This document shows positions 762 to 8,365 of a DNA stretch of 25,373 nucleotides, piece by piece. Within the stretch, counting starts at the first letter, position 1. Each line of letters starts with the position of its first letter. The notes beneath the pieces are model-generated. The model made no database searches. It was given only the letters and a program-made list of their open reading frames with translations, and was not told the DNA's origin. This DNA is from a virus. The stretch spans positions 1 to 25,373 of the IMG/VR virus record IMGVR_UViG_3300030333_002820; one strand, given 5' to 3'. The position numbers and the translations under genes are program-made.

Positions 762-1718
762 TTATCTCTCCCTCTCCAGGATATATCTACCCCATACCTC
801 GGCTACCTGCGGTACTACCGCATTGCCTAAGCATCTAATTCTGTGTGCCCTATTGGGAACCCCATTAACCACTCTGTCCAGTCCGGGCTCAAATTCCCAT
901 TGATCCCTCCCGGCTTGTTGATGTACTCGCACAAGTTGCTCTTGTATGTGGGGCTCCCTGGATATCTGTTTTTCGGGCATCCTTTCGCATCCGATGCTGC
1001 TGGTGTTGGTATGAATGTTTTTTTCCCGTTCTTTCTCTTGCTGAATTCCAGATCGGGACGTACCGCCCTGGATAGGCTCCCGCTCGGCATCTTCTCCGCA
1101 TCTGTTGCTACTGGGGTAGGCCACATTCTCAATGGCTTCTCTGAAAGACTGTCCCTGACCGCTGCTCCCAGATTCCAGCCGTGCTTTCCTGTTTTGTGAC
1201 TCGGGGCTATAGATTCTCCTCCCGTCATTGCTGTCGGGGTAGGCCAGTATGAACACCCGGTCACGTCTGTGAGGGGCACCAACACTGGCAGCCGGTATAC
1301 AGTGCCATTCCGCATCGTACCCGATCTCGGCCACTTCTCCGAGTACTCTATCCATCCCCCGAGTAAGGAGCGCTGAGACGTTTTCCAGTAAAAGGTATCT
1401 CGGTCTGAGTCTCTCTGTAATTCGCATAACTTCGTAAAATAGTCCGCTTCGTTTTCCATCTAATCCGGCTCCTTTGCCTGCATAACTTAAATCCTGGCAA
1501 GGGAATCCCCCAGCCAATACGTCTATATCCCAGTCTCCAGCCTCTGGAGGAAAAGTAGTAACATCGTTCCACCTTTTAGCCTCCGGCCAGTTTTTCTCGA
1601 GTACCTTAGTAGCGTACTCGTCTATCTCTACCTGCCATTTGACGGCAAAGCCTCCGGTCATCTCTAACCCTAGCCCTATACCACCAATACCAGCAAATAG
1701 CTCACCTACCTGTAACAT
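762..1718 (-). CDS. dcm-like: DNA (cytosine-5) methyltransferase
   Basis: A 318-aa C5-MTase with the conserved motifs in order: motif I FAGIGGIGLGLE (residues 8-19, SAM binding), motif IV GGFPCQ with catalytic Cys74, motif VI ENV (112-114), motif VIII GAPHRRDRVFI (148-158), a variable target-recognition region (about 165-275) and motif X GNAVVPQV (298-305). Start ATG has a GGAGGG Shine-Dalgarno and overlaps the preceding small gene closely. No adjacent restriction enzyme is recognisable, so it is best read as an orphan methyltransferase protecting phage DNA from host restriction. The target-recognition region is low in obvious structure and contains a long second open frame on the same strand (827-1459, separate entry). 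Target sequence unknown. Confidence 0.95.
   Translation of the reverse strand: MLQVGELFAGIGGIGLGLEMTGGFAVKWQVEIDEYATKVLEKNWPEAKRWNDVTTFPPEAGDWDIDVLAGGFPCQDLSYAGKGAGLDGKRSGLFYEVMRITERLRPRYLLLENVSALLTRGMDRVLGEVAEIGYDAEWHCIPAASVGAPHRRDRVFILAYPDSNDGRRIYSPESQNRKARLESGSSGQGQSFREAIENVAYPSSNRCGEDAEREPIQGGTSRSGIQQEKEREKNIHTNTSSIGCERMPEKQISREPHIQEQLVRVHQQAGRDQWEFEPGLDRVVNGVPNRAHRIRCLGNAVVPQVAEVWGRYILERER
827..1459 (-). CDS. Possible overprinted 210-aa ORF nested in the methyltransferase gene
   Basis: A 633-nt open frame on the same strand as the methyltransferase but in another frame, entirely inside it. Its translation is not random-looking. It contains WPRSGTMRNGTVYRLP, two WPTP repeats and one PTPAASD, and ends with LSPDWTEWLMGFPIGHTEL. 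I recognise this pattern from proteins annotated in many phage genomes. The ATG has AAAGGAG nine bases upstream. Against it: the same DNA encodes conserved methyltransferase motifs. IPAASVGAPHRRDR reads as RLPVLVPLTDVT in the other frame, and GLDRVVNGVPNR reads as DWTEWLMGFPI, so the family itself may be an out-of-frame echo of C5-MTase conservation. Real expression is unproven. Confidence 0.3.
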   Translation of the reverse strand: MENEADYFTKLCELQRDSDRDTFYWKTSQRSLLGGWIEYSEKWPRSGTMRNGTVYRLPVLVPLTDVTGCSYWPTPTAMTGGESIAPSHKTGKHGWNLGAAVRDSLSEKPLRMWPTPVATDAEKMPSGSLSRAVRPDLEFSKRKNGKKTFIPTPAASDAKGCPKNRYPGSPTYKSNLCEYINKPGGINGNLSPDWTEWLMGFPIGHTELDA

Positions 1719-4546: not shown

Positions 4547-4721
4547 GTTTAACCCGTTTAGCTCTGCCGGCTGTAATAAAGTGCCTAATAAATGCTAATA
4601 GCCCTACCTGTTTAAATCCCTGCGTATCTAATGATTTATCTAGTTTTGATAAAGCGTCTACGTTATTGGTTAATATTCGTAATCTCTTATTTTGTCCGGG
4701 TTTTATGTAGCGTACTCTCAT
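4527..4721 (-). CDS. Small basic hypothetical protein (64 aa)
   Basis: Not recognised. A Lys/Arg-rich 64-aa protein (about one residue in four basic) with an RLRILTNN start and a C-terminal amphipathic helix followed by a basic tail (AGRAKRVKRDSTRA). AAGGAG precedes the ATG. It overlaps the 3' end of the initiator gene (35 nt) and the sulfotransferase-like gene (20 nt). A nucleic-acid-binding or partner-of-initiator role is conceivable from charge and position only. Confidence 0.55.
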   Translation of the reverse strand: MRVRYIKPGQNKRLRILTNNVDALSKLDKSLDTQGFKQVGLLAFIRHFITAGRAKRVKRDSTRA

Positions 4722-5493
4722 ACTCTTTAATCTCCTTGCGTAGGCTCTCCGCTGTAACTGTGTCTCCCTGATTCCTTTCTACTAGCCTCTGTAATCGCTT
4801 CTGCGCATCGTATAGTAGCGTATTTGTTACATCTCTCTTATTTACTCTCTTAGCAGGCTTAACGGGCTCCTCTGGATTACTGATATCTCCTAGCCCTTTC
4901 CAACCATTAGCAATCGCTCTGTTAACCTTTAATTCTAAGCTACTCGTAGGGATTCTCTCCACCTGTTTAATAAAAGCCTCTATCTGCTGATCTGTATAAC
5001 GAGCTCCTGTACGCTTATACTTAACCCAGGAGGCTATCACTCCATCTCTAACTACGTCCCCAAAAACAAAAACCCTTTTTCCCTTTCTTTTATTCTTTTC
5101 TTCTTTTCTTATTCTAATATCAGTTTGCATATCAGTTTGTATATCAGTTTGCGTATCAGTAGCTGTGTGGCTTTTTAGTGCCTCGTCTTGGTAAGTCCTG
5201 TAATTACAAATAGTTACGACCGTACAAACCGTATCAGCCTCTATGCGTATCATTTTGAGCCCCTCTAATACCTTTAGATGCCGTCTAACAGTGTTTACCG
5301 AGCAGTCCAGAGCTCTCGCTGCTCTCTGGTTACTGGTGACTAGCTGCCCTCTCTCTATGTAGATACCCTGCCGGGTCTGCCTATCTTCCCAGTTAGCATT
5401 TAATAAGAGCCAGAGCCAAGTTTTTAATAGTTTAGGCTCCTCAAATACCTCGGACTCTAAGAGCCTCCGGTATATTTTTACGTACCCCTGCAT
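4687..5493 (-). CDS. Replication initiator, winged-helix DnaD/O-like
   Basis: A 268-aa product from the ATG at 5493, preferred over an upstream GTG at 5538 because AGGAGGG lies just before it and the GTG lies inside a terminator hairpin. The N-terminal domain (about residues 1-105) follows phage initiators with a winged helix: GYVKIYRRLLE, LLKTWLWLLLNANW, then 'A-A-R-A-L-D-C-S-V-N-T-V-R-R-H-L-K-V-L-E'. A repetitive TDTQTDIQTDMQTD linker is encoded by 12-bp tandem repeats (putative origin). The C-terminal half has basic and helical segments resembling the DnaD/lambda-O helicase-loader contact region (VIASWVKYKR, KGLGDISNPEEP). It lies downstream of Sak4 and SSB-like genes. No helicase or polymerase is in the window, so host enzymes are probably recruited. 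Confidence 0.75.
   Translation of the reverse strand: MQGYVKIYRRLLESEVFEEPKLLKTWLWLLLNANWEDRQTRQGIYIERGQLVTSNQRAARALDCSVNTVRRHLKVLEGLKMIRIEADTVCTVVTICNYRTYQDEALKSHTATDTQTDIQTDMQTDIRIRKEEKNKRKGKRVFVFGDVVRDGVIASWVKYKRTGARYTDQQIEAFIKQVERIPTSSLELKVNRAIANGWKGLGDISNPEEPVKPAKRVNKRDVTNTLLYDAQKRLQRLVERNQGDTVTAESLRKEIKEYESTLHKTRTK
5065..5160. other. Putative origin: 12-bp iterons plus A/T-rich purine tract
   Basis: On the minus strand four tandem units sharing ACTGATA at exact 12-bp spacing (5160-5149, 5148-5137, 5136-5125, 5124-5113; consensus ACTGATAYRCAA, last unit divergent) are followed by a purine-rich, A-rich tract from about 5112 to 5065. The block lies inside the initiator gene, as the lambda origin lies inside gene O, and its DNA repeats explain the TDxQ protein repeats. 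Function is inferred from position and architecture. Confidence 0.55.
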
Positions 5494-5509
5494 AGTATCC
5501 CTCCTACGC
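5490..5509 (-). promoter_or_regulatory. Start-site hairpin of the initiator gene with AGGGA loop
   Basis: In the minus-strand RNA GCGUAG (5509-5504) pairs with CUAUGC (5495-5490), six pairs with one G-U. The 8-nt loop GAGGGAUA is the Shine-Dalgarno and fits the ANGGAN core bound by CsrA proteins. The AUG start is in the 3' arm. Folding would restrain translation, and a CsrA dimer could occupy the loop. Confidence 0.45.
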
Positions 5510-5511
5510 TT

Positions 5512-5548
5512 AAAAAATGCCCTGGCAGATATCCCCACCTGCCAGGGC
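5512..5548 (-). terminator. Intrinsic terminator or attenuator upstream of the initiator gene
   Basis: Perfect 10-bp stem GCCCTGGCAG / CTGCCAGGGC (5519-5528 with 5539-5548), 10-nt loop; on the minus strand the stem is followed by A and six T (5517-5512). It lies between the 47-aa gene and the initiator ATG. Read-through or an antitermination event would be needed for transcripts from upstream to reach the replication genes, unless a promoter lies in 5490-5512, where none is evident. Confidence 0.75.
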
Positions 5549-6178: not shown

Positions 6179-6362
6179 ACTTAACCTTTAATAAATTGCA
6201 AATATCAGTAAGTGATTTATAACCCAGGTAGATACCCGTATTTTTGCGGACGTAGTTTCTAATCTGCCCGATAGTCATCCTCTCTAGTTCCTCTCCTACT
6301 AGCTGCACGTAATCAAAAACCCGGATAATATCGGCCGTTTTTCTAGAGCTCCTAACTGGCAT
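6165..6362 (-). CDS. Small hypothetical protein, possible HTH (65 aa)
   Basis: A basic, fully helical 65-aa protein lying between and overlapping the Sak4-like (11 nt) and DUF669-like (14 nt) genes. The segment MTIGQIRNYVRKNTGIYLGYKSLTDICN looks like helix-turn-helix or resolvase-arm spacing, but no family is recognised. Its position suggests an accessory DNA-binding component of the recombination module. Confidence 0.6.
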   Translation of the reverse strand: MPVRSSRKTADIIRVFDYVQLVGEELERMTIGQIRNYVRKNTGIYLGYKSLTDICNLLKVKYEIR

Positions 6363-7236
6363 TTATTCTATCCTCGCAGTAAGTCAGACACTTGTCTACC
6401 TGTTGCTCTGTTAGCTGGTATAGCTCCTCCACTCCCGCAGCCTCCAACCAAGAGTCTACAGTAGCCTGCCCTATGCCCGCCTCTCTGCGTTTACTATCCA
6501 GGAGTGTTACCTTTTCCTCGGGAGCAGGTACTATAGCCTGCTCTGTTTCTTTTTCGATTAGCTCCGCTCCGAATCGTTTAGAGAATTCCGGGAACTTTAG
6601 CGGGAAACTAGAGCCGGTATCTAATCCCTTGATTCTGGATTTACGCACCTTAGCCTTACGGGTTTTACCTATCATGCTAACCTCTAGCCATACGTCTAGT
6701 TTATGGTCTAGCTTTTTCATACCGTCAAAAGTAGAGCCTACTACCTCGGACTCTCCCTTAGCGTTTTTTCCCCATTTATCCGCTGGATGACAGATTAGAA
6801 TGACGTTCATATCTAGTTTATTAACCCAGTGGAGCAGCCTACGGGTAGGCTTATTAGCTTCTCGCTTATCTGCTCCAAAGTCATTACCTACCTTTATCTC
6901 TGCCTTAGCTGCTTCGGCATTGTAGAGCTCTGTAAAAGAATCTATTACGAGCGTCTGGTAATCGTGCTCTACGGTAGCTAACGCTATTACCTCGTCGATA
7001 ACGCTATTGATACTACCGGCTCCCTCCGCTCGTCCAAAGTAAGCACCTCCGGACTGCTCTAACTTCTCCTGGTAATGATCTCGGACGGCAGAGCCCTCTA
7101 CGTCTATAAAATAGCATTTTGGGAAGTCTAAACTAAAATAAGTCTTTCCTACCCCTGCTGCTCCGCTAATGATAATCCGGGCTCTCTGGATACCCTTAGC
7201 CTCTGGTTTCCGCGCTTTTAGGCTTTTCTTTGCCAT
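6352..7236 (-). CDS. Sak4-like RecA-fold ATPase (AAA_24)
   Basis: A 294-aa P-loop ATPase: Walker A GAAGVGKT (residues 25-32), an FIDVEGS strand, Walker B TLVIDS (D99), a His-Pro sensor-type segment (LICHPADKW) and a basic segment MIGKTRKAKVRKSRIKG that fits DNA contact. This architecture is that of the phage Sak4/AAA_24 ATPases, short RecA-type single-strand annealing recombinases that act with an SSB encoded nearby. A C-terminal helical region (about 240-294) is a probable interaction domain. SD is CAGGAG. The 5' end overlaps the csrA-like gene by 41 nt, implying coupled translation of regulator and recombinase. Confidence 0.85.
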   Translation of the reverse strand: MAKKSLKARKPEAKGIQRARIIISGAAGVGKTYFSLDFPKCYFIDVEGSAVRDHYQEKLEQSGGAYFGRAEGAGSINSVIDEVIALATVEHDYQTLVIDSFTELYNAEAAKAEIKVGNDFGADKREANKPTRRLLHWVNKLDMNVILICHPADKWGKNAKGESEVVGSTFDGMKKLDHKLDVWLEVSMIGKTRKAKVRKSRIKGLDTGSSFPLKFPEFSKRFGAELIEKETEQAIVPAPEEKVTLLDSKRREAGIGQATVDSWLEAAGVEELYQLTEQQVDKCLTYCEDRINAS

Positions 7237-7390
7237 TGTCTAACTCCTGTAGTTCTGATCTTAGTACGGGAATACTCCTATCTGCCTCGATGTGCAAAAT
7301 AGCAGAGTCCCCCTTAAAACGTGTAACGGTTATGAGAGCCTTACCTACTGTAAAGCTATCGCCCCTCTTTCTAGATATAACTAAACCCAT
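7196..7390 (-). CDS. csrA: CsrA/RsmA-family RNA-binding regulator
   Basis: A 64-aa homologue of the global regulator CsrA. The first strand LVISRKRGDSF aligns with 'L-I-L-T-R-x-x-G-E-S', followed by the conserved 'G...I.V......G....I.I.A....P-V-x-R-x-E' sequence (KALITV, LHIEADRSIPVLRSEL). R44, a main RNA contact in characterised CsrA, is kept, as is the Arg of strand 1 (R7). The tail after residue 50 is Lys-rich. CsrA dimers bind GGA in hairpin loops, often over ribosome-binding sites, to block or stabilise mRNAs. This gene's own RBS lies in such a loop (7389-7412). It sits between an unknown gene and the Sak4-like gene, which it overlaps. It may retune host CsrA targets or phage mRNAs. Confidence 0.88.
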   Translation of the reverse strand: MGLVISRKRGDSFTVGKALITVTRFKGDSAILHIEADRSIPVLRSELQELDNGKEKPKSAETRG

Positions 7391-7412
7391 TTATCTACTC
7401 CCTCAGATAAAT
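7389..7412 (-). promoter_or_regulatory. Hairpin enclosing the csrA ribosome-binding site
   Basis: Minus-strand RNA AUUUAUCU (7412-7405) pairs perfectly over 8 bp with AGAUAAAU (7396-7389). The 8-nt loop GAGGGAGU holds both the Shine-Dalgarno and an A-G-G-G-A-G match to the CsrA core ANGGAN. The first two bases of the AUG are in the 3' arm. It also overlaps the stop codon of the upstream 197-aa gene. This is the classic layout for CsrA autorepression. Confidence 0.55.
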
Positions 7413-7996
7413 AAACCCTGTAGTACTTCCTGCCTCTTATCGGCTTTACGCAGCATGCTAGGTACCTCGGACATGGTAAACCCCAGATCGTAAATAGGCA
7501 CCTGGTATATCGTCGGCCTTAAATTCCAGATATTACCATTTTCTAGCTGTAGCCTATCGCAGCCCCCGTAAAAGTGAACTAATTTACCATCGTAGCGAGC
7601 CGCTAGATAGAGCCTCACCATCGTCTCAGAATGTAACCTGTAACGGCTTAACCTCAGACCCTCCTCAGCCTCGTTGTAATCAAACCCGGCAGAGGTAGGT
7701 ATAATACAGAGAGGCAGTATAACCCCCGATTCTATAGACTCTACAACAAAATCTATATATGTCCCTGCGTTGTATCCCCACTCGTGGAATAGCCCCTCGT
7801 TTACGCAGTATCGACTAAATGCCCAATGAGTTACTAGGTCTAAAAATACGCTTTCCTCATCGTACCGCCTGCCCGAGTAATTAGAGTAGTTAGCAGGTCT
7901 AGCCTTATCGCTCGCATACGTTTTAATCCGCTGAGCGATTCCTTTAGGTACTCGTATTTTAACTGCGTTGGAATTTTGCATTGAAGAAAATAACAT
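7403..7996 (-). CDS. Hypothetical protein (197 aa)
   Basis: Not recognised. Mixed alpha/beta protein with a basic N-terminal segment (VKIRVPKGIAQRIKTYASDKARP), a Tyr/Arg-rich turn (NYSNYSGRRYDEES) and a YIDFVVES strand followed by another strand VILPLCIIP, loosely reminiscent of PD-(D/E)xK nucleases, but no E-x-K follows. The GGAGGGAG Shine-Dalgarno supports the start at 7996; an in-frame Met at codon 6 is an alternative. It is the first gene of the regulation/replication module and its stop lies inside the csrA RBS hairpin, so its translation could open that hairpin. Confidence 0.7.
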   Translation of the reverse strand: MLFSSMQNSNAVKIRVPKGIAQRIKTYASDKARPANYSNYSGRRYDEESVFLDLVTHWAFSRYCVNEGLFHEWGYNAGTYIDFVVESIESGVILPLCIIPTSAGFDYNEAEEGLRLSRYRLHSETMVRLYLAARYDGKLVHFYGGCDRLQLENGNIWNLRPTIYQVPIYDLGFTMSEVPSMLRKADKRQEVLQGLFI

Positions 7997-8092: not shown

Positions 8093-8365
8093 CTATTTTG
8101 TGAGAATATACCAGAGAGCAGTACCGGCAGCAGATGCTATAGCAGTTATAGCAGTCCTGGTAGCCCATCTGGTAGAGCCTTTTAGCTCCTTTAGGTCTGT
8201 CTCATTTAGGAGCACTCTAGCCTCTAGGCTAGGCTTTCCGTTACCTCTGTATAGATGCGTTAGAGGCTTTATTTCGGTTAGAACTTGCTCTATTTTTATC
8301 TCTAAACGGCTAATATCTTTTCTTACTTCGTCGTATTCGCTCATTATGTAAAAGCCGGTAGGCAT
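8093..8365 (-). CDS. Coiled-coil protein with C-terminal membrane segment
   Basis: A 90-aa protein (83 aa if the second Met at 8344 is used). Polar coiled-coil-like N-terminal half (ISRLEIKIEQVLTEIKPL), then a single hydrophobic segment TAITAIASAAGTALWYIL ending two residues before the C-terminus. This N-out or N-in tail-anchored layout is seen in hemolysin XhlA-like and other lysis-accessory proteins that help holins. The start is uncertain: AUG 8365 lies in the loop of a stable hairpin (8353-8380) and has AGGAAGGG pressed against it, while AUG 8344 has no visible Shine-Dalgarno. Confidence 0.65.
   Translation of the reverse strand: MPTGFYIMSEYDEVRKDISRLEIKIEQVLTEIKPLTHLYRGNGKPSLEARVLLNETDLKELKGSTRWATRTAITAIASAAGTALWYILTK

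What the first reader, a model, noticed from the sequence alone, without database searches (positions are those of the whole stretch)
7389..7412. Phage-encoded CsrA whose own start site is a textbook CsrA hairpin
Seen: the 64-aa CsrA homologue (7196-7390) has its Shine-Dalgarno in the 8-nt loop GAGGGAGU of a perfect 8-bp hairpin ending in the start codon. Known: CsrA dimers bind ANGGA in hairpin loops over RBSs, including their own. Inferred: the phage protein represses its own translation. Phage CsrA genes are uncommon, and one in the replication module, overlapping a Sak4-like recombinase gene by 41 nt, suggests a post-transcriptional switch.
Basis: partly seen in the sequence, partly recalled or inferred. 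Interest (0 to 1): 0.82.

Follow-up and report, generated by a model that had tools for sequence, protein, structure and literature searches.

The report
Phage CsrA gene with hairpin-masked start
An uncultured virus of bacteria carries a gene for the RNA-binding regulator CsrA, and the start of that gene's message folds into a hairpin that looks like a CsrA docking site, so the protein may switch itself off; phage CsrA genes are known, and none of the virus's relatives available here has the hairpin.

Summary
Minus-strand 7412-7389 is a perfect 8-bp hairpin with loop GAGGGAGU. Its loop holds the Shine-Dalgarno of the 64-aa ORF at 7196-7390, and its stem holds A and U of the AUG. With G-U pairs it is an AGGGAG (ANGGAN) hexaloop on a 15-bp stem. 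It is the only such site in the window and far beyond shuffles. The protein is a CsrA-family member (Pfam above cut-off; R44 and E46 kept; CsrA folds fill the top 15 structure matches). csrA sits in a conserved, tightly packed block, upstream gene - csrA - sak4, in ten related IMG/VR loci, and evolves under purifying selection there. The hairpin is not conserved: none of 8 distinct csrA leaders from relatives has it, and one has no GGA at its ribosome-binding site. Available relatives are distant (csrA at most 36% identical), so a recent, lineage-specific device is not excluded. The left arm is the last codons of the upstream gene, which makes a ribosome-opened coupling hairpin a strong rival or co-mechanism. 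Phage csrA genes, CsrA autoregulation and GGA loops over ribosome-binding sites are each documented. I rate it a new member of a known kind, with a clean, testable candidate autoregulatory site.

The parts
7196..7390 (-). csrA-family gene, 64 aa (P0001)
   Evidence: Pfam PF02599 35.7 bits against a cut-off of 27; Foldseek top 15 all CsrA/RsmA; R44 and E46 kept
7389..7412 (-). 8-bp perfect hairpin with loop GAGGGAGU; hides A and U of the AUG, displays the SD
   Evidence: sequence; folds and shuffles
7383..7418 (-). extended 15-pair stem (8 Watson-Crick, 7 G-U) under an AGGGAG hexaloop
7398..7403 (-). AGGGAG loop: ANGGAN CsrA-type motif containing SD GGGAG
7428..7430 (-). second GGA, 29 nt upstream of the loop GGA (inside the published 10-63 nt bridging range)
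   Evidence: range from PMC7652899
7403..7996 (-). upstream gene orf197, unknown function; its last codons (Leu-Phe-Ile-stop) form the left arm of the hairpin
   Evidence: homologues precede csrA in relatives
6352..7236 (-). Sak4-like AAA ATPase (AAA_24), start overlapping csrA by 41 nt
   Evidence: Pfam PF13479 and PHROG 124; overlap 20-35 nt in the relatives

Best explanation
The gene encodes a genuine phage CsrA. It lies in a tightly packed block (orf197 - csrA - sak4) in which each gene is probably translationally coupled to the one before. In this phage the csrA start sits in a hairpin that hides the AUG and displays the SD in an ANGGAN loop. Ribosomes finishing orf197 open the hairpin and allow csrA translation. 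When CsrA accumulates, a dimer binds the loop (and perhaps the GGA 29 nt upstream) and blocks the SD, lowering csrA and, through the overlap, sak4 synthesis. Shown here: CsrA family membership, the hairpin, its rarity, the gene order and overlaps, purifying selection on csrA in relatives. Inferred: dimerisation, RNA binding, repression, coupling. Whether the phage's own CsrA or the host's is the main binder is open.
For: CsrA identity. RNA-contact residues R6, R44, E46 kept, L4 to I, T5 to S, R7 to K (R44 and L4 critical per PMC7652899). Loop AGGGAG fits ANGGAN; AGGGA loops bind RsmE tightly (PMC4005645). SD-in-loop is the arrangement solved for RsmE with hcnA mRNA (2JPP). E. coli CsrA represses its own mRNA through sites including one over the SD (PMC7652899). 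The hairpin is unique in the window and exceeds shuffles and 373 real gene starts. csrA dN/dS is about 0.04-0.24 in relatives.
Against: No other csrA leader in the group has the stem (8 distinct leaders), and L037/L038 lack GGA at the csrA and sak4 ribosome-binding sites. Seven further csrA leaders from unrelated phages lack it too. The stem is much longer than most SELEX ligands, and the loop is an octaloop unless G-U closes it. GGA occurs in most SD sequences anyway (260 of 373 starts). The window CsrA is the most divergent of its group, with a one-residue deletion and a changed Q29.
Confidence: 0.48

Rival explanations
1. The hairpin is only a translational-coupling device: it masks the csrA start until ribosomes translating orf197, whose last codons are the left arm, unfold it. 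CsrA binding plays no part.
For: Left arm is orf197 codons and the stop codon is at the loop edge, 12 nt before the ATG. Upstream stop and csrA start are -1 to +8 nt apart in the relatives that keep an orf197 homologue directly before csrA, so close coupling is the conserved feature. RNA unfolding at inter-gene hairpins is an established model (PMC12548453).
Against: Does not explain why the loop is exactly ANGGAN in a csrA leader, although an SD makes this likely. Relatives manage without a hairpin.
Confidence: 0.3
2. The hairpin is a chance or neutral structure with no regulatory role.
For: No conservation in 8 distinct leaders. Given the actual spacer, about 18% of synonymous recodings of the upstream codons still give a stem of 7-8 bp, and about 0.2 such GGA hairpins are expected somewhere in the window. 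It was picked after reading the whole window.
Against: Seven of 20,000 shuffles at this site; none of 373 real starts; 15 contiguous pairs against a maximum of 9 in shuffles.
Confidence: 0.17
3. The host's CsrA is the regulator (overlaps with the main explanation): the phage leader reads host CsrA levels, and the phage protein acts mainly on host messages.
For: A plasmid-borne RsmA was exchangeable with the chromosomal one of another genus, and phage csrA is proposed to act on host physiology and CRISPR-Cas (PMC8450108); one phage csrA contributes to plaque size (PMC11879866).
Against: Host unknown; no related prophage or host found, so whether the host has CsrA is not known.
Confidence: 0.15
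4. The inverted repeat is a DNA operator for a dimeric repressor.
For: Perfect 8-bp inverted repeat with half-site centres 16 bp apart.
Against: It occurs once in the window even at 3 mismatches, no promoter-like site was found next to it, and it lies inside an operon.
Confidence: 0.02

Closest known systems
E. coli csrA autoregulation (reviewed in PMC7652899)
   Same: CsrA-type site over the SD of csrA itself; inferred negative feedback
   Different: E. coli leader has four sites; here one structured site plus one GGA, at an operon junction, and no binding data
RsmE with hcnA mRNA (2JPP; PMC4005645)
   Same: SD in an ANGGAN loop on a stem
   Different: hcnA loop has a C-G closing pair; here an AU-rich 8-15 bp stem with G-U closure that also contains the AUG
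Phage-encoded CsrA/RsmA (Pseudomonas F116 and phi297, Vibrio D65, E. coli phage PTXU04; PMC7366521, PMC8450108, PMC11879866)
   Same: phage csrA gene, in F116 and phi297 a few genes before recombination genes
   Different: not directly next to a sak4 gene in the annotated regions inspected; no leader hairpin in the 7 inspected; sequence far from the window protein
Translationally coupled gene pairs with an inhibitory hairpin (PMC12548453; phage f1 VII/IX, MS2 coat/lysis)
   Same: hairpin spanning the end of the upstream gene and the downstream start
   Different: the loop carries a CsrA motif before a gene for CsrA
CsrA control of iraD through a coupled upstream ORF (PMC5574718)
   Same: CsrA plus translational coupling
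   Different: there CsrA acts through a short upstream ORF; here the site is at the downstream start

Membership tests
CsrA/RsmA protein family (PF02599) | match above curated cut-off | tested here: met
   35.7 bits against 27
CsrA/RsmA protein family (PF02599) | RNA-contact residues L4, R6, R7, R44, E46 | tested here: met
   R6, R44, E46 identical; L4 to I and R7 to K conservative
CsrA/RsmA protein family (PF02599) | CsrA fold | tested here: met
   model pLDDT 69, core 83-87; top 15 PDB matches are CsrA/RsmA, prob 0.91-1.00, E 0.01-0.18; moderate confidence
CsrA/RsmA protein family (PF02599) | dimerisation and RNA binding | not testable with these tools
   needs protein
CsrA binding site | GGA, best ANGGA, in a hairpin loop | tested here: met
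   AGGGAG loop
CsrA binding site | hexaloop directly on the stem | tested here: inconclusive
   only if the G-U pair closes (probability 0.74); octaloop otherwise
CsrA binding site | short stem (4 or fewer bp in most SELEX ligands) | tested here: not met
   8 Watson-Crick bp, 15 with G-U; a tendency, not a strict requirement
csrA autoregulation | site overlapping own SD | tested here: met
   SD GGGAG in the loop
csrA autoregulation | site conserved in relatives with covariation | tested here: not met
   absent in 8 distinct relative leaders; relatives are distant
csrA autoregulation | protein represses own leader | not testable with these tools
   needs gel shift and reporter
Translationally coupled gene pair | short stop-to-start distance, conserved | tested here: met
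   12 nt here; -1 to +8 in relatives with orf197 directly upstream
Translationally coupled gene pair | inhibitory structure opened by the upstream ribosome | tested here: inconclusive
   structure present with left arm in orf197; opening not testable

The most novel reading that the evidence does not exclude
A phage CsrA that represses its own translation through an SD-displaying hairpin placed at an operon junction, so that one RNA element combines coupling to the upstream gene with negative feedback and, through the overlap, sets the dose of a Sak4-type recombinase.
Probability: 0.4. Interest if true: 0.55.

Novelty: new member of a known kind. Interest (0 to 1): 0.42.

Why it matters
Phage CsrA proteins are widespread, but I found no paper in the library searched that describes how their genes are controlled or shows their own messages as targets. 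This leader is a compact, cheap test case: a 38-nt RNA and a 64-aa protein. A conserved csrA-sak4 block in uncultured phages also suggests that CsrA may act on the phage's own replication genes and not only on the host.

Tried and rejected
P0001, P0002 and P0003 alone found no relatives in viral contigs; P0001 had no match in INPHARED; the exact leader pattern had no match. The csrA alignment had no stretch conserved enough for a scan. Prophage or host search in genome contigs failed twice, so the host is unknown. Rfam had no match. DNA operator rejected. One INPHARED csrA (Acinetobacter 'phage' MD-2021a) is bacterial DNA next to alaS and was left out. Covariation analysis was not run because no relative shares the stem. 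The closest terminase relatives (95-98%) are fragments that, by their length, do not reach csrA.

Full report
What is there. On the minus strand, 7412-7389 reads ATTTATCT-GAGGGAGT-AGATAAAT, a perfect 8-bp inverted repeat whose loop holds the Shine-Dalgarno GGGAG and whose right arm runs into the AUG of the 64-aa ORF at 7196-7390. Allowing G-U pairs the stem is 15 pairs under an AGGGAG hexaloop, spanning 7383-7418. The 24-nt and 38-nt RNAs fold at -5.2 and -7.9 kcal/mol, about three standard deviations below shuffles. A longer 101-nt segment is not exceptional. In a 100-nt context the stem pairs have probability near 0.87, the AUG is paired and the loop is over 90% open.

Is it chance? A GGA loop on 8 or more Watson-Crick pairs appeared in 7 of 20,000 dinucleotide shuffles of the 55-nt leader; 0.2 are expected in the whole window on both strands, and this is the only one. 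For an ANGGAN hexaloop the contiguous stem is 15 pairs against a maximum of 9 in 20,000 shuffles. Among 373 gene starts in related phage loci, none had more than 6 Watson-Crick pairs around an SD GGA. One caution: with the real spacer kept, about 18% of synonymous recodings of the last upstream codons still give 7-8 bp, because Leu-Phe-Ile codons are AU-rich.

The protein. P0001 passes the Pfam CsrA cut-off (35.7 bits against 27). A profile of its relatives finds CsrA/RsmE/RsmA structures in the PDB. A model of moderate confidence (pLDDT 69; core 83-87) matches CsrA/RsmA chains in its top 15 Foldseek hits, including RsmE bound to the hcnA SD, although E-values are weak (0.01-0.18) for so small a protein. 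In the alignment with E. coli CsrA, R6, R44 and E46 are kept, L4 is I, T5 is S, R7 is K, and Q29 is S. It is the most divergent member of its group.

Relatives. The window is a 25,373-nt IMG/VR record. Terminase and Sak4 searches gave related records. csrA lies directly before sak4 in ten related loci (L035-L044, eight distinct csrA leaders), overlapping its start by 20-35 nt; the window overlap is 41 nt. In all but L042, where a DPPY-motif methyltransferase-like gene intervenes, an orf197 homologue ends -1 to +8 nt from the csrA start. csrA is missing before sak4 in L031, and another small ORF takes its place in L033 and L034; these are the closest Sak4 relatives of the window (57-60% identical). 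Pairwise dN/dS in csrA is about 0.04-0.24, so the gene is maintained.

The hairpin in relatives. None of the eight distinct leaders forms it; the best is a 4-bp AATA/TATT stem with GGGGA in L043, reduced to 2 bp in L044. L037/L038 have no GGA before csrA or sak4. Seven csrA leaders from unrelated phages also lack it. It is not met for a recent, lineage-specific one, because the nearest csrA is only 36% identical and the 95-98% terminase relatives are fragments that stop short of csrA.

Mechanism. CsrA-type binding is well supported by form: ANGGAN loops are the high-affinity target, AGGGA loops bind well, and SD-in-loop is the solved RsmE-hcnA arrangement (PMC4005645). E. coli CsrA represses its own translation through sites including one over the SD (PMC7652899). 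A second GGA lies 29 nt upstream, within the published bridging range of 10-63 nt. Against this, SELEX ligands mostly have 4 or fewer contiguous pairs, and an octaloop costs about tenfold in affinity. The left arm is coding sequence of orf197 and its stop is at the loop edge, so ribosomes finishing orf197 must open the stem; this is the RNA-unfolding model of coupling (PMC12548453). I therefore favour a combined device, coupling plus CsrA feedback (0.48), over coupling alone (0.30) or a neutral structure (0.17). These are judgements, not computed probabilities.

What is known. Phage csrA genes were catalogued in 30 of 2,517 phages (PMC7366521) and found in many GenBank and IMG/VR phages, with a proposed anti-CRISPR role (PMC8450108). 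Knock-down of one reduces plaque size (PMC11879866). A consensus query found 91 INPHARED records, of which at least one is bacterial DNA. The finding is a new member of a known kind with an attractive, unproven regulatory site.

Noticed in passing
L033 2395-2604, L034 upstream of 2489: In relatives lacking csrA, a different small ORF (MSDLNTILNNLDKAGF...) occupies the csrA slot before sak4.
   Followed up: partly
L042 1802-2317: A methyltransferase-like gene with a DPPY motif is inserted between the orf197 homologue and csrA.
   Followed up: no
window 762-1718: C-5 cytosine DNA methylase (PF00145) next to a small helix-turn-helix protein (545-757).
   Followed up: no
window 7403-7996: orf197 family of unknown function (no Pfam or PHROG match) conserved before csrA/sak4 in the group.
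   Followed up: partly
window 5519-5548: Strong terminator-like hairpin (13 pairs, T-rich tail) on the minus strand between replication genes.
   Followed up: no
window 4687-5538, 8093-8365: DnaD-like helicase loader and XhlA-type holin, types I associate with phages of Firmicutes; the csrA group's best PDB match is 5dmb, a CsrA bound to a flagellar assembly factor. Host not identified.
   Followed up: partly
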